Positions 13,645 through 42,935 of a stretch of DNA of 50,838 nt are shown here, one piece after another. Position 1 is the stretch's first letter, and every line of letters begins with the position of its first letter. A program made the translations under genes and the position numbers. The notes beneath the pieces are model-generated. The model was given only the letters and a program-made list of their open reading frames with translations, made no database searches and was not told where the DNA came from. Origin of the DNA: a virus; the IMG/VR virus record IMGVR_UViG_3300031774_000025, positions 1-50,838 of that record. The stretch is one strand, 5' to 3'.

Positions 13645-15735
13645 ATGAAAATAGATGATTTAATAACAGAAACCGGAATTGGTTATTCAGACGGATGGTC
13701 ACAGTTTTCAAATGCTGGTCAAGAAGCATTTAAAAAAGATAATTTGCAAGGCCTATTTGATTGGGCAAAGACTATATTTCCTGAGTTCGCTGAATTTAGC
13801 AAAGAAGATTTCGAAGAAGATTTTAGAAACTATGTAAAAGACAATGACGGCGATGTCAACGAAGGACTAATAGCATGGTTAGATTTTTATTATGAAACAT
13901 ACTATATACAAAATAAAGATGCAGTAAAAAATCAAGCAATGCAGAAATTATCACTTCAAGCATCCGCGGGAGGCGGAGGTGCTGGTGGCGGTGGCGGTGC
14001 AGGTGGCGGTGCTGGAGCAGGTGGCTCTGGTGGTGCAGGTGCAGGTGCTAGTGCTGGTGGCGACGGTGGCTCAGCAAGTTCAAGTGGAGACGGAGGGTCT
14101 GCAGATAGTGGTGGTGCTAGTGATAGTTCCCCTTCCTCCGACTCTGCTCCTAGTGATGCTCCGGCTATTAGAGGTGGTGGTTTTTATGGATTAGGCACTA
14201 TGACAAGTCGCAAAAAGAAGAAAAAGAAAAAGAAAAAGAATTTTGTTTTTGGTGGTAGCATATACAAAGAAATGAATGAGATGGATTCTTGCCCAAGAAC
14301 AAAATCAAAAGGATGCCAATGCGAATCATTACAGAAAATTACAGAAGCAGAGGAAACAGTTAAAGCAATAGCAACACTAGAACACACAGAAGATGATGTA
14401 GCAGGTGTAATTAAATTTAAACAAAAACCAGGAAGGCCAACTATTATTAAAGGAATAGTAAAAGGTCTAACACCTGGTAAACACGGTTTTCATATACACG
14501 AGTTCGGCGATCTAAGTGATGGTTGTGCTAGTGCAGGTGGACATTATAATCCAGACGGTGTTGACCATGGAAGTTTACAACAAGGACATGTAGGCGATTT
14601 AGGTAACGTAACAGCAGATCAATCAGGCACAGCAAGATTTCAAATTAAAGCAGAACGTGTAGAATTATCTGATGTGGTAGGCAGAGCAATAGTAATACAT
14701 GCTGATGAAGATGACTTAGGAAAAGGTGGCGACGACGAAAGTTTAAAAACAGGTAATGCTGGTGACAGATTAGGTTGTGGTGTAATACGTTTACGAAAAG
14801 TAGTTGAAGAAACATTTGAAAGAAAATATTCTGATAAACATTTTGATAGAAATCAATTACCGCAAATTAGAAAACCAGATATAAGAAAGTCCCCATTTAC
14901 TTTTAGAGAAGGTATAATGAATCCTTTCTTAATAAAACCAGTGCAAAGTCAACGTGTAGAAGGTTTGGCAGAATCGGCTGAAAAAGGTTACTTTGATGAT
15001 GACTACAGGCCACTTATATTAGATAAAGACAATTATCTAGTAAACGGACATCACAGATTAGATGCCGCACATATTTTAGGTTTAAGAGAAGTTAAAGTTG
15101 TCAAGGTAAATGCAACTATAGAAGAACTTATGAAACATTTTAAACACAAAATAAGTTATGATAAAGTAATGGAAAACAAGATAAATATTAAAGACATGAA
15201 AGCAAAAGATTTATTATACTTAAAATTCAAAAAATCATTAGTTGAATCAAACATTCAAGAAAGAATGTTTGGTGTAAACGAATATGACATGCTGGATATG
15301 TTTATGAGTTCAGACAATGTAAACAAAGTTTTTGGTAGTGTAAAACGCGGAACACCAGATATGAAACATGAAGGTGTAAGAAATCTAAAAATGTATCTTA
15401 AAAAAGCAGGTATATTTGATGACAACAGAGGCGGCGGTCTTGCTTATAAAAATATAGATTTTGGTCGCATTAACACAGATCAAATAAGCAATGCTAAATT
15501 TGATAATCTTATGTTACATGCAAGAAAACTTGCTGATAATACAAATAATCTTACTGATGTTGCAGAAGAAATGAGGACTACTATACTTGATAATCCTGTT
15601 CCTTCACAAAATGACTTAACATATATTTCTAAAAAGCAAAAAGAATTTGTGGGACTTAAAGCACAACAAATACAAATGATTAAAAATATTAATAATCTTA
15701 TTAAAAGTGTATTTGGTTTAGGAACAACTGCATGA
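13645..15735 (+). CDS. Cu/Zn superoxide dismutase fused to capsid-targeting-like leader and ParB-like domain
   Basis: 696 residues. Order: MKIDDLITE9 targeting-like leader; acidic helical domain to about 105; Gly/Ala/Ser-rich linker (about 108-185); poly-Lys run (about 190-199); a second ITE234|A site; then a Cu/Zn SOD domain (about 240-385). All expected SOD residues are visible: copper ligands H283, H285, H300, H352; zinc ligands H300, H308, H315, D318; disulfide pair C294 and C378; substrate-guiding R375. After it comes a ParB/Srx-like motif (VNGHHRLDAA, residues 466-475) and an unknown helical tail. There is no secretion signal, unlike most bacterial SodC. The reaction, dismutation of superoxide to oxygen and peroxide, is known for the family; packaging in the head is inference from the leader and the internal IxE site. 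Confidence 0.9.
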   Translation: MKIDDLITETGIGYSDGWSQFSNAGQEAFKKDNLQGLFDWAKTIFPEFAEFSKEDFEEDFRNYVKDNDGDVNEGLIAWLDFYYETYYIQNKDAVKNQAMQKLSLQASAGGGGAGGGGGAGGGAGAGGSGGAGAGASAGGDGGSASSSGDGGSADSGGASDSSPSSDSAPSDAPAIRGGGFYGLGTMTSRKKKKKKKKKNFVFGGSIYKEMNEMDSCPRTKSKGCQCESLQKITEAEETVKAIATLEHTEDDVAGVIKFKQKPGRPTIIKGIVKGLTPGKHGFHIHEFGDLSDGCASAGGHYNPDGVDHGSLQQGHVGDLGNVTADQSGTARFQIKAERVELSDVVGRAIVIHADEDDLGKGGDDESLKTGNAGDRLGCGVIRLRKVVEETFERKYSDKHFDRNQLPQIRKPDIRKSPFTFREGIMNPFLIKPVQSQRVEGLAESAEKGYFDDDYRPLILDKDNYLVNGHHRLDAAHILGLREVKVVKVNATIEELMKHFKHKISYDKVMENKINIKDMKAKDLLYLKFKKSLVESNIQERMFGVNEYDMLDMFMSSDNVNKVFGSVKRGTPDMKHEGVRNLKMYLKKAGIFDDNRGGGLAYKNIDFGRINTDQISNAKFDNLMLHARKLADNTNNLTDVAEEMRTTILDNPVPSQNDLTYISKKQKEFVGLKAQQIQMIKNINNLIKSVFGLGTTA

Positions 15736-30492: not shown

Positions 30493-32088
30493 TTACGGTT
30501 TCTGAGGTCCTGTTGGAGCCACAGCATATGATATAACTGCTTCGTAATCATTTGCTTCATCATCGTAATAATATTCGTCTGCAACGTTTAGATCGTTAGC
30601 ATTACCGCCATTTGCGTAAACACCAATTGAATATTCTTCAACTATTGTTTTACTGCCTACTGTTCCTTTAACTGCAAAGTTGTATATGCCTGGTGCTATA
30701 CTATTTGGAGCAAGTGTTGAATTGGATGTATCTGCTGTAACTATACCAGTGCCTGTATTAAATGTCATCCATGGTGACAAAGGACTAAAGTCAATTACTG
30801 CAACATTACTTGCTGAACCACTTATGTTAATGTTTACATTTGCACTTGAACCATATTCAATATCAAATAATCTACCTGATGGATGTGATGCAAATGAAAC
30901 GTCTGTTGATTGTGGAGCATAAGCAAGTGAGAAACTAACATTTCCTGAATCTAATGATTTGCCTGAATCAAATGTTAAGTCAGTATATTTTAAAAGTGTA
31001 GTAGTGCTGTCTGAAGAGTTTGAAGTCTGCCTTGCGTAAATATGCCCTTCTGTTACTAATGTTGATTTAATTTGGTTTGCAGATTGTGAACTATATATGT
31101 CAATATATTGAGCACAAATACCTGATGTAATTGCAGTAGAAACAGAAGTTCCGTCTTGCCATACATAGTTTGCAACATTACTGCTGTCTGCAATCATTAC
31201 GTCTTTACCTATTGCAAAGATATCAAGTTTAGCATTTGTATTAACTGATCTTTCTAAATCGATATTTGCTGAAGTATCTACAATCGGTCTATTAGTAATA
31301 TCCATTACTTTATAACTATTATCTATAGCACCTACAGTAATAACTGTATCTAAACCACCCGGTGTAAAGTTATCTACTTCACCACCATCATTACCTGCGG
31401 CCGCTATAACAATAAGGCCATCATCTAACATATCATTAAGAGTATCATCAATTAATTGGCTCTTAGTCATAGTAAATGGCATACAAACAACTTTTGGATC
31501 TGAGGCATCGTTTGCCGCATGGTGAACTGCGACTGAATCTAAAGCAGAAACAACTTCACCAACTGATATGTTTCCTGCTCCTTCGTTAAACATTTTGACA
31601 TTAAACAAAGTTGCATCTGGAGATGAACCTATGTTGTCACCTACTATAAGACTTGCCATTGCTGTTCCGTGGCCATTTGTGTCTGCAAAGCCAGTTGCAA
31701 TAGATGTATTATATAGGTTTGTGATAGTTGAACTACCGAATTCGTTATGTGATGCATTAATTCCTGTATCTAATAGGTAAATCTTTGCATTTGTTCCTGT
31801 GCTTTGAGGACTCCATGCAGGTGCCCCACTTGCGTCAATGCCGTGTTGTTTAAGAAAAGTGTTGTTTGCCGTTGCTATAGATAAGTTACTTGTAACTTCA
31901 TCTGCTTCTAACTGACTACTTTTCAATCCGTTAATTGCCGCAACTTGTTCCTGTGTTCCTTCAACTTTATAACTTCCTAACATTTTATAGTTAGTTGTTA
32001 TCGATGCACCGGCATTAGTAATAGCAGTATTACATTGATCAGATGTAGAGTGAACTGCCTTATTAATTTTGATGATATATGATGCCAT
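30493..32088 (-). CDS. Subtilisin-like serine protease (S8)
   Basis: 531 residues. An N-terminal inhibitor-I9-like prodomain (ASYIIKINKAV...LGSYKVEGTQEQ) is followed by the S8 catalytic domain: D107 in IYLLDTGIN, H140 in TNGHGTAMAS, N233 in AAAGNDGG (oxyanion hole) and S315 in DGTSVSTA. The C-terminal 190 residues are beta-rich, Ig-like, and end in an acidic Tyr-rich tail. There is no signal peptide, so it probably acts in the virion or during assembly. A late promoter on the minus strand at 32124-32131 and GGAG at 32095-32098 precede it. The processed target is unknown. Confidence 0.9.
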   Translation of the reverse strand: MASYIIKINKAVHSTSDQCNTAITNAGASITTNYKMLGSYKVEGTQEQVAAINGLKSSQLEADEVTSNLSIATANNTFLKQHGIDASGAPAWSPQSTGTNAKIYLLDTGINASHNEFGSSTITNLYNTSIATGFADTNGHGTAMASLIVGDNIGSSPDATLFNVKMFNEGAGNISVGEVVSALDSVAVHHAANDASDPKVVCMPFTMTKSQLIDDTLNDMLDDGLIVIAAAGNDGGEVDNFTPGGLDTVITVGAIDNSYKVMDITNRPIVDTSANIDLERSVNTNAKLDIFAIGKDVMIADSSNVANYVWQDGTSVSTAITSGICAQYIDIYSSQSANQIKSTLVTEGHIYARQTSNSSDSTTTLLKYTDLTFDSGKSLDSGNVSFSLAYAPQSTDVSFASHPSGRLFDIEYGSSANVNINISGSASNVAVIDFSPLSPWMTFNTGTGIVTADTSNSTLAPNSIAPGIYNFAVKGTVGSKTIVEEYSIGVYANGGNANDLNVADEYYYDDEANDYEAVISYAVAPTGPQKP

Positions 32089-32168: not shown

Positions 32169-33197
32169 ATGAATTTCACTTTAGGACACCCAAATTCTGT
32201 TTTACTACAGGACCGTATGTGTGTTTACACTATTAAAAAGCCTGAAGATAATTTATCTCTATTAGAAAGATATCATAACGAATTAAAAGAATTCGATGGT
32301 TGCACCTTGATGTTAAGTGGCGGAACAGACAGCCAATTTATGTTAAGACTGCTAACACATTTTAACATAAAATTTATACCAATTACATATAAAACAACAT
32401 GGAAAGGCGGTGTTGTAAATACTGACGATGTAATATATGCTCAAGAAGTAGCAAACAAATTTAGTCTTGATTTAGAGGTTATAGATTTTGATTTAAAAGA
32501 ATTTTACGACAGCAACCAACACATGAGAGTTGGAAAAAAGTTTAATACATCTAGTCCACAGGTTGCTATGCATTTAGAATTTATAGACAGATATATACCC
32601 CCTAATAGCAAACTGGTTATGGGCGGCGACATGCCTTACTTGATCTATAACCAAGCAGGTAGTGAACATAACAATTATACTGGATTAGACTATTTGGTTG
32701 CAGAGACTCCTAGAATATTAGTTAATACTATAAAACCTTATCATAATATTTGTGAAAACAAAGGCATACAGTTTATTAAAAACATATCTTATTGCTCTCC
32801 TGAAGCAGTATATCAAATATTAGATCAGCAAATCAAAATAGTAGAAGAACAAAAAATTCATGTAGAGTTTAACGACAAAGAGCCTCAATTCAGAGAGATG
32901 TTAGAATTTAAAAAAGCAGTTTGGAATTCTATAGTGCCGGGCGATATAAACACTCTTATGAAAGTTGGCGGCTTTGAAAGACTTAAAAAGTTTCTTGCAA
33001 TTAAGTCAGGTATATACAACCACTATGATAAACTATACCGAGAGCCTATGCAAGTATATGATGATAAAACTAAAGTAGATGGTATCAGATATAAACTCAA
33101 AATCGATGATGCTACTAAACAACTTTCACAACGTTTCGAAGATGCAATAAAAAAATCTAATAGCAAATGTATCAACGGATTCCATTTTGACTTCTAA
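32169..33197 (+). CDS. PP-loop ATP pyrophosphatase, asparagine-synthetase-like
   Basis: 342 residues. CTLMLSGGTDSQFMLRLL contains the SGGxDS PP-loop (residues 50-55) that binds ATP pyrophosphate in asparagine synthetase, N-type ATPase and sugar amidotransferase families. IKFIPITYKT and LDLEVIDFDL supply the following Rossmann-like strands. There is no N-terminal glutaminase, so ammonia or another nucleophile would come from a partner. It could form an amide on a sugar or amino acid. No late octamer or clear early promoter is seen in the 80-base gap between it and the divergent protease gene. Confidence 0.75.
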   Translation: MNFTLGHPNSVLLQDRMCVYTIKKPEDNLSLLERYHNELKEFDGCTLMLSGGTDSQFMLRLLTHFNIKFIPITYKTTWKGGVVNTDDVIYAQEVANKFSLDLEVIDFDLKEFYDSNQHMRVGKKFNTSSPQVAMHLEFIDRYIPPNSKLVMGGDMPYLIYNQAGSEHNNYTGLDYLVAETPRILVNTIKPYHNICENKGIQFIKNISYCSPEAVYQILDQQIKIVEEQKIHVEFNDKEPQFREMLEFKKAVWNSIVPGDINTLMKVGGFERLKKFLAIKSGIYNHYDKLYREPMQVYDDKTKVDGIRYKLKIDDATKQLSQRFEDAIKKSNSKCINGFHFDF

Positions 33198-33231: not shown

Positions 33232-33239
33232 TATAAATA
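33232..33239 (+). promoter_or_regulatory. Exact TATAAATA octamer, target unclear
   Basis: The only perfect T4 late consensus in the window. The nearest downstream gene starts 126 bases away with a terminator-like hairpin in between, so it may be inactive or drive a short transcript. Confidence 0.35.
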
Positions 33240-33322: not shown

Positions 33323-33351
33323 TTGATTTTGAAAGAGGTTATGTGTAATAC
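33323..33351 (+). promoter_or_regulatory. Sigma70-like early promoter for the cytochrome c operon
   Basis: TTGATT at 33323-33328, a 17-base spacer and TAATAC at 33346-33351. It lies 14 bases before the first ATG (33365) of the five-gene operon. The -10 is a moderate match. Confidence 0.5.
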
Positions 33352-33364
33352 AAATAGATATAAC

Positions 33365-33466
33365 ATGAGTAAACAAACAATCACAAAAGTAAAAGACAGA
33401 GCAGAACTTTTTACATTAATTAGCATGTTTTTGTTTAGTGTTTTAGCACTAACACCTGCAGTATAA
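33365..33466 (+). CDS. 33-residue single-pass membrane peptide
   Basis: MSKQTITKVKDRAELF is a short basic N-terminus followed by one hydrophobic segment (TLISMFLFSVLALTPAV) to the end. It is the first of five genes in a row whose stop and start codons overlap as TAATG, which strongly supports it as a real gene despite its length. Small hydrophobic proteins of this type often accompany respiratory or photosynthetic complexes, but no family is recognised. Confidence 0.6.
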   Translation: MSKQTITKVKDRAELFTLISMFLFSVLALTPAV

Positions 33467-33594
33467 TGAAATTACCACTCTGTTACATGATTCTACTATT
33501 CGCCGCACATACTGATAGCATTGCGGGAATATTACGTGGATTAAAAGATGTTTCAAAGACAGATTATATTTTAGTGCCCAACGATAAAGAATAA
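33466..33594 (+). CDS. 42-residue peptide with hydrophobic start
   Basis: The sequence starts MKLPLCYMILLFAAHTDSIA, one short hydrophobic stretch, and continues with a polar tail (KDVSKTDYILVPNDKE). It overlaps the previous stop and the next start as TAATG. The hydrophobic part is only about 14 residues, borderline for a membrane span or signal-like anchor. No function is recognised; operon position links it to the cytochrome c that follows. Confidence 0.5.
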   Translation: MKLPLCYMILLFAAHTDSIAGILRGLKDVSKTDYILVPNDKE

Positions 33595-34040
33595 TGAGAG
33601 AATTAGGAATGGTTCTATTAGGTTGCTTTGCAATCTTTAGTTTCTTTGCGTTCAAAATTCATCCATCATTAGAGTATAGTGGATACAGTAGTAATAATTC
33701 ATGCACAGGCGAATGTTATGCTCAATATGTAGCACTTAATGGCACACCAGCAGAGATAGAACAAGCCAAACGTGCATTAGCAGAAGGTGATCCTTTTAGC
33801 AGTATAAGAAGTTTATGGTCAGGTTGTGCCGCATGTCACGGAGCAGACGGTGGCGGTGGAATAGGTCCAATGTTAGCAGGACAAAGTTCAAGTGATATTA
33901 TTAGTAAACTTACTACATACAAAAACAATGGAACAATAGGAAGCCAGAGTGCTCTTATGTGGGGACAAGCGGCTATGCTGTCTGAAAAGGATATAGAAAC
34001 AATTGGCGAGTTTATACAAGCCGGACTACCAGGGAAATAA
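33594..34040 (+). CDS. Membrane-anchored class I cytochrome c
   Basis: 148 residues. Residues 4-20 form an uncleaved-looking hydrophobic anchor that would place the rest in the periplasm. C78-A-A-C81-H82 is the heme c attachment motif, followed by GADGGGGIGPMLAGQ, the family's conserved loop; M122 in SALMWGQAAMLSEKDI is the likely axial Met, and the terminal helix (IETIGEFIQAG) is typical. An extra CxxxC (C37, C41) precedes the heme domain. Such proteins carry single electrons between respiratory complexes. Heme attachment would need the host's cytochrome c maturation system. It is the centre of a five-gene TAATG-overlapping operon. Confidence 0.9.
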   Translation: MRELGMVLLGCFAIFSFFAFKIHPSLEYSGYSSNNSCTGECYAQYVALNGTPAEIEQAKRALAEGDPFSSIRSLWSGCAACHGADGGGGIGPMLAGQSSSDIISKLTTYKNNGTIGSQSALMWGQAAMLSEKDIETIGEFIQAGLPGK

Positions 34041-34327
34041 TGGAAAAACAAATTTACGACCCTTTATGGAAAAGATGGAAAACAGTTGAGCCTGAAGTTG
34101 TTGCTCCTGTTATAACAAGTGGCTACGAACAACAATTAGAACTACAATTAAATAAAACTGTAGATGCAACACCAGAAGATGTTCGCAAATGGCAAAACGG
34201 TGGTGACTTCTTTATGACGGGTGACTTTGATGCAATGAAATTTTTTGTTGTAATACCAGCAGTTATACAAATTGTAGTATTTTTTATGATGTTGGCTGTA
34301 ATGGCTTTAAATGAAATAATGTTTTAA
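34040..34327 (+). CDS. Small membrane protein of the cytochrome c operon
   Basis: 95 residues. A soluble N-terminal part (YDPLWKRWKTVEPEVV and a Gln/Leu-rich helix) is followed by a single C-terminal hydrophobic segment (about 68-90, FFVVIPAVIQIVVFFMMLAVMAL). It overlaps both neighbours as TAATG. The order, cytochrome c then small tail-anchored proteins, suggests a membrane complex that docks the cytochrome. No respiratory subunit family is recognised with confidence. Confidence 0.6.
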   Translation: MEKQIYDPLWKRWKTVEPEVVAPVITSGYEQQLELQLNKTVDATPEDVRKWQNGGDFFMTGDFDAMKFFVVIPAVIQIVVFFMMLAVMALNEIMF

Positions 34328-34485
34328 TGATTATAGAAGCATTAAAGGCCGTTATTGGCGTAGGCAAGAAAGGCCGTGATGTTGAAATTACACCTCTTCG
34401 AATTCTTATTTTTGCTTTTTTAGTTGCGTCTATATTTTTAGGATTTATAAGTTTATTACTCACTATGGTTAGTTTTCTATACTAA
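34327..34485 (+). CDS. 52-residue membrane protein, last of cytochrome c operon
   Basis: MIIEALKAVIGVGKKGRDVE is a short amphipathic/basic start, followed by a strong hydrophobic span (ILIFAFLVASIFLGFISLLLTMV). It starts in the TAATG overlap with the previous stop. Its stop is followed within 10 bases by the late promoter of the next gene, so the operon ends here. Function unknown beyond probable membrane location. Confidence 0.55.
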   Translation: MIIEALKAVIGVGKKGRDVEITPLRILIFAFLVASIFLGFISLLLTMVSFLY

Positions 34486-34491
34486 TCGGCA

Positions 34492-34499
34492 CATAAATA
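34492..34499 (+). promoter_or_regulatory. T4-type late promoter (CATAAATA), near-leaderless spacing
   Basis: The last A is 7 bases before the GTG at 34506. An ATG at 34504 would end after five codons, so GTG is the usable start. Confidence 0.6.
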
Positions 34500-34505
34500 T
34501 CTAAT

Positions 34506-35006
34506 GTGCATAAAGTTTTAAAAAATATTTTTACAGAACAACAATGTGACAGTTTAATAGAAACTGTTAGCAGTAATACATTGTCTGAAAAAATTATTTC
34601 AAACTCTGGCGAAAAAATGTCACGAGCATATTTAAACGAGAAATGGCAATATTTTTTTACAAGATTATTTAGAAAAGAAATACAAGAACATTTTGATATT
34701 ATAAATCAATCTTTAATTGATTATGACATAGTAAGTTTTAGAACCATGCATTACCCCAAAGGCGCATCTATTGGAAGGCACACAGATAGTTACATGAAAC
34801 AAGATGGAGAAAGTAACACAGGATTAATCATTCAACTTACAGAACCAAATGTTTATAAAGGTGGCTATTTGAGAATGTCTAATGAATTGATAGAGTTAAA
34901 CAAAGGAGATGCTGTATTATATTCTTATGATACACCTCATGAAGTTACAAAAATAAAAAGCGGAGATAGGTGGATAGCCAGTATTAGGTTACTTCTAAAA
35001 AGATAA
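34506..35006 (+). CDS. 2OG-Fe(II) oxygenase-like protein
   Basis: 166 residues from a GTG start. GRHTDSY gives the His-x-Asp iron ligands, PHEVTKIKSGDRWIASIRLL the distal His and the Arg that holds 2-oxoglutarate; LIIQLTEPNVYKGGYLRM is the central strand with its Gly-Gly. The length and layout are like short prolyl-4-hydroxylase-type phage proteins. The substrate is unknown; nearby genes do not settle it. It lies between the cytochrome c operon and the lipase, but is under its own late promoter. Confidence 0.75.
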   Translation: MHKVLKNIFTEQQCDSLIETVSSNTLSEKIISNSGEKMSRAYLNEKWQYFFTRLFRKEIQEHFDIINQSLIDYDIVSFRTMHYPKGASIGRHTDSYMKQDGESNTGLIIQLTEPNVYKGGYLRMSNELIELNKGDAVLYSYDTPHEVTKIKSGDRWIASIRLLLKR

Positions 35007-41548: not shown

Positions 41549-42088
41549 ATGAACATAAAATTAGTAGAACCAAAACATCCTGCTTTACATTCAGTAACAA
41601 ATATAAATCCATTTGACGATAAGGATGTTAATTGGGAAGAACGTGAACAAGAAATGATCCAACTTATGAAAGATAGATTTGGTATTGGTCTTGCTTCTCC
41701 CCAAATAGGTTCGAGTCACAAAATGTTTGTAATGACATTATCTACTGGACAAGACATTGGTGTTTTTAATCCTGAAATATTAGAGTTTAGTGATGATGAG
41801 ATTGGCATGCAAGAAGGCTGTTTAACGTTTCCTTTGCTATATTTTATTGTTACAAGACCAGCAAAAGTAAAAGTAAGATTTCAAACAGTAGACCAAGAAG
41901 TAGTTGAAGATTGGTTAGAAGGTATGGACGCAAGGTGTTTTCAACACGAGTTTGACCACTTACAAGGCAAACTATATTTGGACTATGCAAGTGATATGAA
42001 ACTACAACGTGCTATGAAAAAACGTGACAAACAGATTAAAATGTTACAAACAGATTTAGCCTTGCAAAAACTAGAAAATGAGTCTTGA
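41549..42088 (+). CDS. def: Peptide deformylase
   Basis: 179 residues. Removes the formyl group from new protein N-termini. The three motifs are complete: GIGLASPQIG (Q52), EGCLTFP (C91, metal ligand) and QHEFDH (H133, E134, H137). It has the standard core and a charged C-terminal helix, so it is somewhat longer than the short phage deformylases. Marine phages often carry a deformylase, thought to help the host process phage or photosystem proteins; here no photosystem gene is nearby. Its late promoter suggests use on virion proteins. The 3' end overlaps the GH6 gene. Confidence 0.95.
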   Translation: MNIKLVEPKHPALHSVTNINPFDDKDVNWEEREQEMIQLMKDRFGIGLASPQIGSSHKMFVMTLSTGQDIGVFNPEILEFSDDEIGMQEGCLTFPLLYFIVTRPAKVKVRFQTVDQEVVEDWLEGMDARCFQHEFDHLQGKLYLDYASDMKLQRAMKKRDKQIKMLQTDLALQKLENES

Positions 42089-42935
42089 ATATCCTTTTTG
42101 GGTAAACGATTTCGATAGAGTTCGCGACCACAAGCAAAAATATCCCCTAGCAAGTAAAATATTTGAATATCCTACTGCCTTCTGGTATGGAGAACGCAAT
42201 GGTAAAGAGATGAAAGATCTAGATAAAAGTTTAAAAAGGCTTTTTAAAAGAACTTTACCAGGTTTACCTATATTAGTAGTGTATAATTTGCCAAATAGAG
42301 ATATAGGACAATACAGCAAAGGTGGTGCTAAAACTAAAGAAAGTTATTTAAATTTTATGCAAAGTTTTGCAGACGGAATAGGTGATTTGTCCCCTATAGT
42401 TATTTTTGAACCTGATGCTTTACCTCATTTAGTAGAAATGAGTAAGGAAGATAAAGCATATAGAATAGAATTAATGAAAGAAGGATTAGCAATACTAACA
42501 TCACGGTCTAAAGCATTAGTATATATAGATATAGGTCACAGTAATTGGCTTACTCCAAAAGAAGCAAGTGATTTAATAGGTTTTGTTACTAATGAGCATG
42601 TAAGAGGCTTTGCAGTCAATGTAAGCAACTACAGAACGTCTAAGGAGTCTTTAAATTGGGGTTTAAAGGTGTGTGAGTATAGACCAAACGATACATTTAT
42701 AATAGATACAAGTAGAAACGGCAAAGGGCCTCACGGCAACGATTGGTGTAACCCTCCAGGTAGAGCATTAGGCATGCCTCCTTCAACTAATACACTTCTT
42801 GATAAATGTGATGCTTACTTATGGATTAAAGTTCCTGGTGAGAGTGACGGCAAATCAAATGGTGGGCCAAGAGCCGGAAGGTTTTGGGGTGAGATGGCGG
42901 AAGAATTAGTAAAGAATACTAGTTGGATTTCTTAA
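42078..42935 (+). CDS. Glycoside hydrolase family 6-like (beta-1,4-glucanase type)
   Basis: 285 residues. The GH6 barrel motifs appear in order: VVYNLPNRDIGQYSKGGA (D75), IVIFEPDALP (D113, general acid), VYIDIGHSNWL (D151, W157), FAVNVSNYRT, IIDTSRNGKGP (D210), WCNPPGRALG and LWIKVPGESDG. This family cleaves beta-1,4-glucan by inversion. There is no signal peptide or carbohydrate-binding domain, so it either acts on an intracellular glycan, rides on the particle, or has been recruited to phage entry or release. It overlaps the deformylase end and, at its own end, the minus-strand glycosyltransferase. Confidence 0.9.
   Translation: MSLEYPFWVNDFDRVRDHKQKYPLASKIFEYPTAFWYGERNGKEMKDLDKSLKRLFKRTLPGLPILVVYNLPNRDIGQYSKGGAKTKESYLNFMQSFADGIGDLSPIVIFEPDALPHLVEMSKEDKAYRIELMKEGLAILTSRSKALVYIDIGHSNWLTPKEASDLIGFVTNEHVRGFAVNVSNYRTSKESLNWGLKVCEYRPNDTFIIDTSRNGKGPHGNDWCNPPGRALGMPPSTNTLLDKCDAYLWIKVPGESDGKSNGGPRAGRFWGEMAEELVKNTSWIS

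What the first reader, a model, noticed from the sequence alone, without database searches (positions are those of the whole stretch)
33323..34485. Early-type operon with a membrane-anchored cytochrome c and four small proteins, three with clear membrane spans
Five genes in a row overlap in the same way (TAATG at 33466, 33594, 34040, 34327). The central one is a class I cytochrome c with CAACH heme motif, conserved loop, axial Met and an N-terminal anchor. Three of the other four are small single-span membrane proteins; the 42-residue one has a borderline hydrophobic start. A sigma70-like promoter (TTGATT-17-TAATAC) lies upstream, as it does for nrdA, dexA and the exonuclease, whereas structural genes use the late octamer. 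This suggests an early metabolic takeover module that reroutes electrons in the host membrane. I do not recognise the small proteins as subunits of a known complex.
Basis: partly seen in the sequence, partly recalled or inferred. Interest (0 to 1): 0.87.

Follow-up and report, generated by a model that had tools for sequence, protein, structure and literature searches.

The report
Marine phage membrane-bound cytochrome c operon
A marine T4-like phage carries its own membrane-bound cytochrome c, set among tiny membrane-protein genes; hundreds of uncultured phage contigs carry relatives, which suggests that these viruses feed or steer their bacterial host's respiratory chain during infection.

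Summary
The five overlapping genes are real, and relatives show purifying selection on each. The central one is a class I, c554/c552-like cytochrome c with an N-terminal anchor, CAACH and axial Met. At least 512 IMG/VR contigs encode relatives; tblastn found none in 50,697 isolate phage records. Phage copies form one clade (support 99/99), sister to a membrane-anchored cytochrome c of Halieaceae-type gammaproteobacteria sharing a C-x-G-x-C-Y motif.

The small-protein families recur beside the cytochrome in three phage neighbourhoods, but also occur without it: 54 of 94 newly fetched loci picked by the g4 family show no cytochrome c. So cytochrome c is optional cargo in a phage membrane-protein cassette. 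Related cassettes carry pseudoazurin, alternative oxidase, ferredoxin or PyrD, which parallels the petE/PTOX/petF genes of cyanophages.

The 'early, not late' claim fails. A perfect T4-type late octamer, TATAAATA, lies 133 nt upstream of gene 1, and NATAAATA is kept in 11 of 11 loci of this context; the sigma70-like site is weak.

Most likely role: a phage copy of a periplasmic electron carrier that keeps quinol-to-oxygen flow and ATP supply going. That is inferred, not shown. No publication on it was found.

The parts
33232..33239 (+). TATAAATA, T4-type late-promoter octamer, 133 nt upstream of g1
   Evidence: Only + strand TATAAATA in the window; NATAAATA in 11 of 11 window-type loci, shuffle mean 2.0, maximum 7; ATAAATA invariant in the upstream alignment
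33323..33351 (+). Weak sigma70-like element TTGATT-17-TAATAC
   Evidence: Read directly; a similar element in L007 and L058; not listed by the scan, whose count equals chance
33365..33466 (+). g1, family B, 33-aa single-span membrane protein
   Evidence: Homologues beside cytC in many loci; alignment A3 with invariant Glu before the span; dN/dS 0.33-0.60 where calculable
33466..33594 (+). g2, family E, 42 aa, signal-like hydrophobic start and short tail
   Evidence: Homologues in L007, L058, L003, L261; dN/dS 0.11-0.36 where calculable; borderline hydropathy
33594..34040 (+). cytC, 148-aa membrane-anchored class I cytochrome c; anchor helix 33597-33671, CxGxCY motif 33702-33719, CAACH 33825-33839, axial Met122 33957-33959
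   Evidence: Pfam, alignment, PDB profile, AlphaFold and Foldseek, tree, dN/dS 0.12-0.31 where calculable
34040..34327 (+). g4, family D, 95 aa, C-terminal membrane span
   Evidence: Alignment A2 with invariant Gln and Met in the span; at least 197 viral contigs with a relative of the L013 member; dN/dS 0.21-0.53 where calculable
34327..34485 (+). g5, family F, 52 aa, C-terminal membrane span
   Evidence: Alignment A4; dN/dS 0.11-0.53
34492..34499 (+). CATAAATA, late-type octamer of the next gene (2OG oxygenase 34506-35006)
32169..33197 (+). QueC/HUP-like gene upstream; conserved neighbour in window-type loci
   Evidence: Relatives within 3 kb of cytC in 10 loci, some of them overlapping copies; Pfam hits below cut-off

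Best explanation
The locus encodes a phage-owned electron carrier: a class I cytochrome c held to the outer face of the inner membrane by an uncleaved N-terminal helix and (inferred) matured by the host's Ccm system. It descends from, or shares an ancestor with, a membrane-anchored cytochrome c of gammaproteobacteria of the Halieaceae-containing order and has evolved inside T4-like marine phages as one clade. The likely mechanism, inferred, is that it accepts electrons from the bc1 complex and passes them to a host cytochrome c oxidase. This would keep quinol oxidation, proton pumping and ATP supply running while the phage replicates or lyses the cell. It is carried inside a cassette of tiny phage membrane proteins (families A, B, D, E, F, G) of unknown function that can exist without it; these may dock or stabilise such carriers. 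In this phage the operon is probably read from a T4-type late promoter, with at most a weak host-type promoter in addition.
For: Heme motif, axial Met and c554/c552-like fold; strong purifying selection on cytC; one phage clade beside a cellular anchored cytochrome; in related phages the same cassette carries other electron-transport proteins: pseudoazurin, alternative oxidase, ferredoxin, PyrD; late octamer conserved.
Against: No biochemical or expression data. Redox partners, heme attachment and topology are not tested. The cargo proteins are found in a minority of loci (AOX in 10 of 213). Many cytC copies lie next to nrdB and glutaredoxin, which allows another redox role. The bc1-to-oxidase step comes from general knowledge of class I cytochromes c.
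Confidence: 0.6

Rival explanations
1. Dedicated five-protein complex: the four small proteins are structural subunits that assemble with the cytochrome into a phage-specific membrane complex which captures host electron flow (the first reader's module).
For: Families B, E, D and F recur with cytC in different orders and in three genomic neighbourhoods; overlapping starts suggest coupled translation; in L003 and L089 they stay within about 3 kb although separated by other genes.
Against: The cassette lacks cytC in 54 of 94 newly fetched D loci and in 19 of 25 whole records; 53 of 119 cytC loci show no recognised cassette member.
Confidence: 0.25
2. Passenger: the small membrane proteins do something else (superinfection exclusion, holin-like or membrane remodelling), and the cytochrome and other redox genes merely inserted into a region that tolerates small genes.
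For: The cassette is present without redox cargo in the operon in L195, L211 and L251; phages often carry tiny membrane proteins of such functions (general knowledge).
Against: Different redox cargo keeps appearing beside the same families in unrelated neighbourhoods; no similarity to a described phage family of known function.
Confidence: 0.3
3. Non-respiratory redox role: the cytochrome acts in envelope stress defence or redox sensing rather than as a respiratory carrier.
For: Peroxiredoxin, glutaredoxin or ferritin genes lie near many copies; two conserved extra cysteines before the heme.
Against: The same cysteines are in cellular relatives; peroxiredoxin, glutaredoxin and ferritin are expected in the cytoplasm, the heme domain in the periplasm; oxidase and cupredoxin cargo points to respiration.
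Confidence: 0.1
4. Cellular contamination or an assembly join.
For: Cytochromes c are normally cellular genes.
Against: At least 512 viral contigs; the same locus in independent assemblies L001 and L002; the phage copies form their own clade; nrdB, gp55 or other phage genes flank many of them.
Confidence: 0.01

Closest known systems
Cyanophage electron-transport genes petE (plastocyanin), PTOX and petF (ferredoxin) (PMC3037559)
   Same: T4-like marine phages carrying a small electron carrier and, in some relatives, a quinol oxidase of the AOX/PTOX superfamily, a cupredoxin and a ferredoxin; scattered distribution and varied genome locations.
   Different: Here the carrier is a membrane-anchored cytochrome c, the chain is respiratory, the inferred host is a heterotrophic gammaproteobacterium, and a cassette of tiny membrane proteins accompanies it. 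AOX, cupredoxin and ferredoxin are in relatives, not in this window.
Membrane-anchored CxGxCY cytochrome c of Halieaceae-type gammaproteobacteria (L132, L160-L179)
   Same: Same layout: N-terminal anchor, CxGxCY motif, single c554/c552-like heme domain; sister clade in the tree.
   Different: In the seven loci whose neighbours were listed the cellular gene stands without the small-protein families, and no family D match was found in 21 of these genomes (without a positive control).
Bacterial cytochromes c554/c552 and c4 domains (PDB 2zzs, 1cno, 1h1o, 1etp)
   Same: Heme-domain fold and motifs.
   Different: Those are soluble mono- or diheme proteins without this anchor and motif.
Viral NorB/NirK (PMC8115048) and viral-fraction cbb3 oxidase subunit I reads (PMC3474794)
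   Same: Respiratory-chain proteins reported in marine viral data.
   Different: Those are catalytic subunits; PMC8115048 says that electron carriers such as cytochromes were not observed in its phages.

Membership tests
Class I cytochrome c (Pfam PF00034) | Profile score above the curated cut-off | tested here: met
   29 bits against 21.3
Class I cytochrome c (Pfam PF00034) | CxxCH heme-attachment motif and distal axial Met | tested here: met
   C78, C81, H82 and M122 invariant in 36 relatives; Met aligned with the c4 Met
Class I cytochrome c (Pfam PF00034) | Covalently bound heme c and reversible redox | not testable with these tools
   Needs expression and spectroscopy
cbb3 oxidase subunit CcoP/CcoO, SoxX and other named NCBIfam cytochromes | Score above the equivalog or exception cut-off | tested here: not met
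   All hits far below cut-off
Phage auxiliary metabolic gene | On phage contigs, host-derived, maintained by selection | tested here: met
Phage auxiliary metabolic gene | Alters host metabolism during infection | not testable with these tools
   No infection data
Five-protein complex with g1, g2, g4, g5 | Obligate co-occurrence of the genes | tested here: not met
   Cassette without cytC and the reverse
Any described family, for g1, g2, g4, g5 | Significant sequence similarity | tested here: not met
   No match to Pfam or PADLOC for these four; none to NCBIfam for g4 and g5; profiles of g1, g4 and g5 find nothing meaningful in the PDB; g4 has only a weak PHROG hit, E 0.021
T4-type late promoter | TATAAATA-like octamer conserved upstream | tested here: met
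   transcription itself not tested
Sigma70-type early promoter | Consensus hexamers above chance and conserved | tested here: inconclusive
   7 of 12 matches by my count, not listed by the scan, which is at chance; a similar element in L007 and L058

The most novel reading that the evidence does not exclude
Uncultured marine T4-like phages share a modular respiratory cassette: a phage-specific set of tiny membrane proteins that acts as a docking or assembly platform for interchangeable electron carriers and oxidases (anchored cytochrome c, pseudoazurin, ferredoxin, alternative oxidase, quinone-linked PyrD). It would be the heterotroph counterpart of the photosynthetic electron-transport genes of cyanophages.
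Probability: 0.3. Interest if true: 0.9.

Novelty: new variant of a known kind. Interest (0 to 1): 0.72.

Why it matters
Cyanophages are known to carry electron-transport genes for photosynthesis. A report of phages of heterotrophic marine bacteria carrying the equivalent carrier for respiration was not found in the open-access library searched. If correct, respiration by infected marine bacteria is partly under viral genetic control, which bears on oxygen use and ATP budgets in infected cells. The small membrane-protein families give a concrete, testable set of new phage genes.

Tried and rejected
Early-only expression: rejected on promoter conservation. Cellular contamination or join: rejected. 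Four MAG hits (L082-L085) first looked like cellular copies but are T4-like phage contigs binned with bacteria. Naming the small proteins by Pfam, PHROGs, NCBIfam, PADLOC and PDB profiles gave nothing. Isolate phages: no relative of the cytochrome or of two cassette families; searches with two other window genes gave only distant relatives, so host assignment from isolates failed. Lipobox reading of the N-terminus: rejected because the Cys is not conserved. Strict co-dependence of cassette and cytochrome: rejected. A second structure job was not used, since single-helix models carry little information. Ten literature searches found no description of this system.

Full report
What is there. The window (G000) is a 50,838-base virus record with a T4-like gene set. 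Between a QueC/HUP-like gene (32169-33197) and a 2OG-Fe(II) oxygenase (34506-35006) lie five + strand ORFs joined by one-base TAATG overlaps: g1 33365-33466, g2 33466-33594, cytC 33594-34040, g4 34040-34327, g5 34327-34485. The stated start 33323 is the -35-like hexamer; g1 is taken to begin at ATG 33365, with alternative starts upstream.

The cytochrome. cytC passes the Pfam cut-off for Cytochrom_C. A profile of 36 relatives finds cytochromes c552, c4 and c554 in the PDB. AlphaFold gives a helix at residues 2-26 and a helical heme domain (mean pLDDT 79.5), matched by c554 (2zzs) and c552 (1cno). CxxCH, Met122 and an N-terminal C37-x-G-x-C41-Y42 motif are invariant or nearly so. Covalent heme, topology and electron transfer are inferred.

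Distribution. A conserved-pattern scan found 512 confirmed relatives in IMG/VR; tblastn found none in 50,697 isolate phage records. L001 and L002 carry the identical cytochrome, and matching small proteins in the same order, from other metagenomes. The close hits in the cellular collection were four phage contigs mis-binned in MAGs.

Origin. Cellular relatives with the same anchor and CxGxCY motif were found among the 22 of 294 genomes that matched in the order containing the Halieaceae MAG G001. They are not general: one genome, the centre itself, of 398 across the phylum at E 1e-20, and 4 of 369 in the class at 1e-18, of which the three other than G001 matched the heme domain only. A maximum-likelihood tree puts 55 phage sequences in one clade (99/99) with a stem of 1.37, beside the cellular clade. 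One old acquisition followed by life in phages fits; the alignment is short, so details inside the tree are unsafe. A host in this bacterial group is an inference from this gene alone.

The small proteins. Homologues of g1 (B), g2 (E), g4 (D) and g5 (F), plus further families A and G, recur around cytC. Common settings are A-B-cytC-D-Ep near the gp55-like late sigma gene, nrdB-D-cytC-glutaredoxin, and the window-type order beside the HUP and 2OG genes (gp55 named by eye). Ep is probably a distant form of E, but profile searches did not join them. In L003 and L089 the cassette lies about 2.3 kb downstream of the cytochrome, with ferritin, IscS and IscU genes between. All five window genes show dN/dS below 1 where it could be calculated, so they are real proteins. 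The small ones match no described family.

Not one obligate module. When loci were picked by family D instead of the cytochrome, 40 of 94 newly fetched loci carried cytC in the stretch and 54 did not. Of 25 whole records searched, 19 had none anywhere, including contigs of 96-121 kb. These records may be incomplete. Conversely 53 of 119 cytC loci show no recognised cassette member. So the cytochrome is optional cargo.

Other cargo. L092, part of a 250.5-kb contig, has B-cytC-EF-hand-pseudoazurin-D-F-ferredoxin-alternative oxidase (AOX Pfam E 1.2e-67). L020 also has a pseudoazurin. AOX occurs in 5 of 48 records searched, not in this window, and in 10 of 213 loci; all eight AOX loci that also hold cytC have it within 3 kb (some loci are overlapping or near-identical copies). 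L256 has EF-hand, PyrD and pseudoazurin between A and D, without cytC in the stretch (PyrD was identified by eye and its quinone type is inference). The set recalls cyanophage petE, PTOX and petF (PMC3037559).

Promoters. In this window 15 of 19 + strand ATAAATA sites in the first 43 kb lie within 140 nt upstream of a gene start, a placement that covers 14% of the sequence. The window's only + strand TATAAATA is at 33232, upstream of g1. NATAAATA is present in 11 of 11 window-type loci against a shuffle mean of 2.0 and maximum 7, and ATAAATA is invariant in the alignment of seven of them. These loci are related, so they are not 11 independent cases. Gp55-type loci instead keep GCGTAT[AC]A (12 of 16, shuffle mean 0.03), so timing may differ by context.

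Mechanism. Shown: sequence, conservation, selection, distribution; predicted: fold. Inferred: maturation by host Ccm, N-in/C-out topology, electron flow from bc1 to a terminal oxidase, benefit through ATP or quinone re-oxidation. I put the electron-carrier reading at about 0.6. Whether the small proteins form a complex with it (0.25) or serve another membrane function (0.3) is open; these two rivals concern the cassette and do not exclude the carrier reading.

Literature. Ten searches of an open-access library found no phage cytochrome c of this type. PMC8115048 states that electron carriers such as cytochromes were not observed in its phages, and PMC3474794 reports viral-fraction reads for a cbb3 oxidase subunit. 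Most subscription papers and preprints were not covered, so 'undescribed' is provisional.

Noticed in passing
L092:11961-12554; L084:9366-9974; L247:2975-3538: Alternative oxidase genes in non-cyanophage-like marine phage contigs; Pfam AOX E 1.2e-67 for L092. Found in 5 of 48 records searched.
   Followed up: partly
window 13645-15735 (+), residues 252-381: A Cu/Zn superoxide dismutase domain (Pfam E 6.9e-44) sits inside a 696-residue phage protein in the structural-gene region.
   Followed up: partly
window 42078-42935 (+): Glycosyl hydrolase family 6 domain (Pfam E 1.9e-53), next to a peptide deformylase gene at 41549-42088.
   Followed up: no
window 30493-32088 (-): Subtilase-family protein (Pfam Peptidase_S8, E 2.7e-21) on the opposite strand, with its own TATAAATA at 32169-32162.
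   Followed up: no
L256:6313-7539: Dihydroorotate dehydrogenase-like (PyrD) gene inside the small-protein cassette; identified by eye only. It would link pyrimidine synthesis to the quinone pool if quinone-dependent.
   Followed up: partly
L003:10447-12586; L089:10457-12614; L012:9537-10767: Iron handling genes next to phage cytC: ferritin-like, IscS and IscU in L003 and L089, IscU and an IscA-type protein in L012.
   Followed up: partly
L082, L083, L084, L085: T4-like phage contigs binned into bacterial MAGs (Sphingobacteriales, Planctomycetaceae, Synechococcus), so MAG labels mislead host assignment here.
   Followed up: yes
L011, L013, L034, L049, L195, L244 upstream of family A: A conserved GCGTATAA-like element in 12 of 16 gp55-type loci (shuffle mean 0.03), a candidate promoter class different from the late octamer.
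   Followed up: partly
L130:1492-1890; L087:7815-8213: Halieaceae have a second, signal-peptide cytochrome c near comM and glnK-amtB whose heme domain is 61-63% identical to the phage one.
   Followed up: partly
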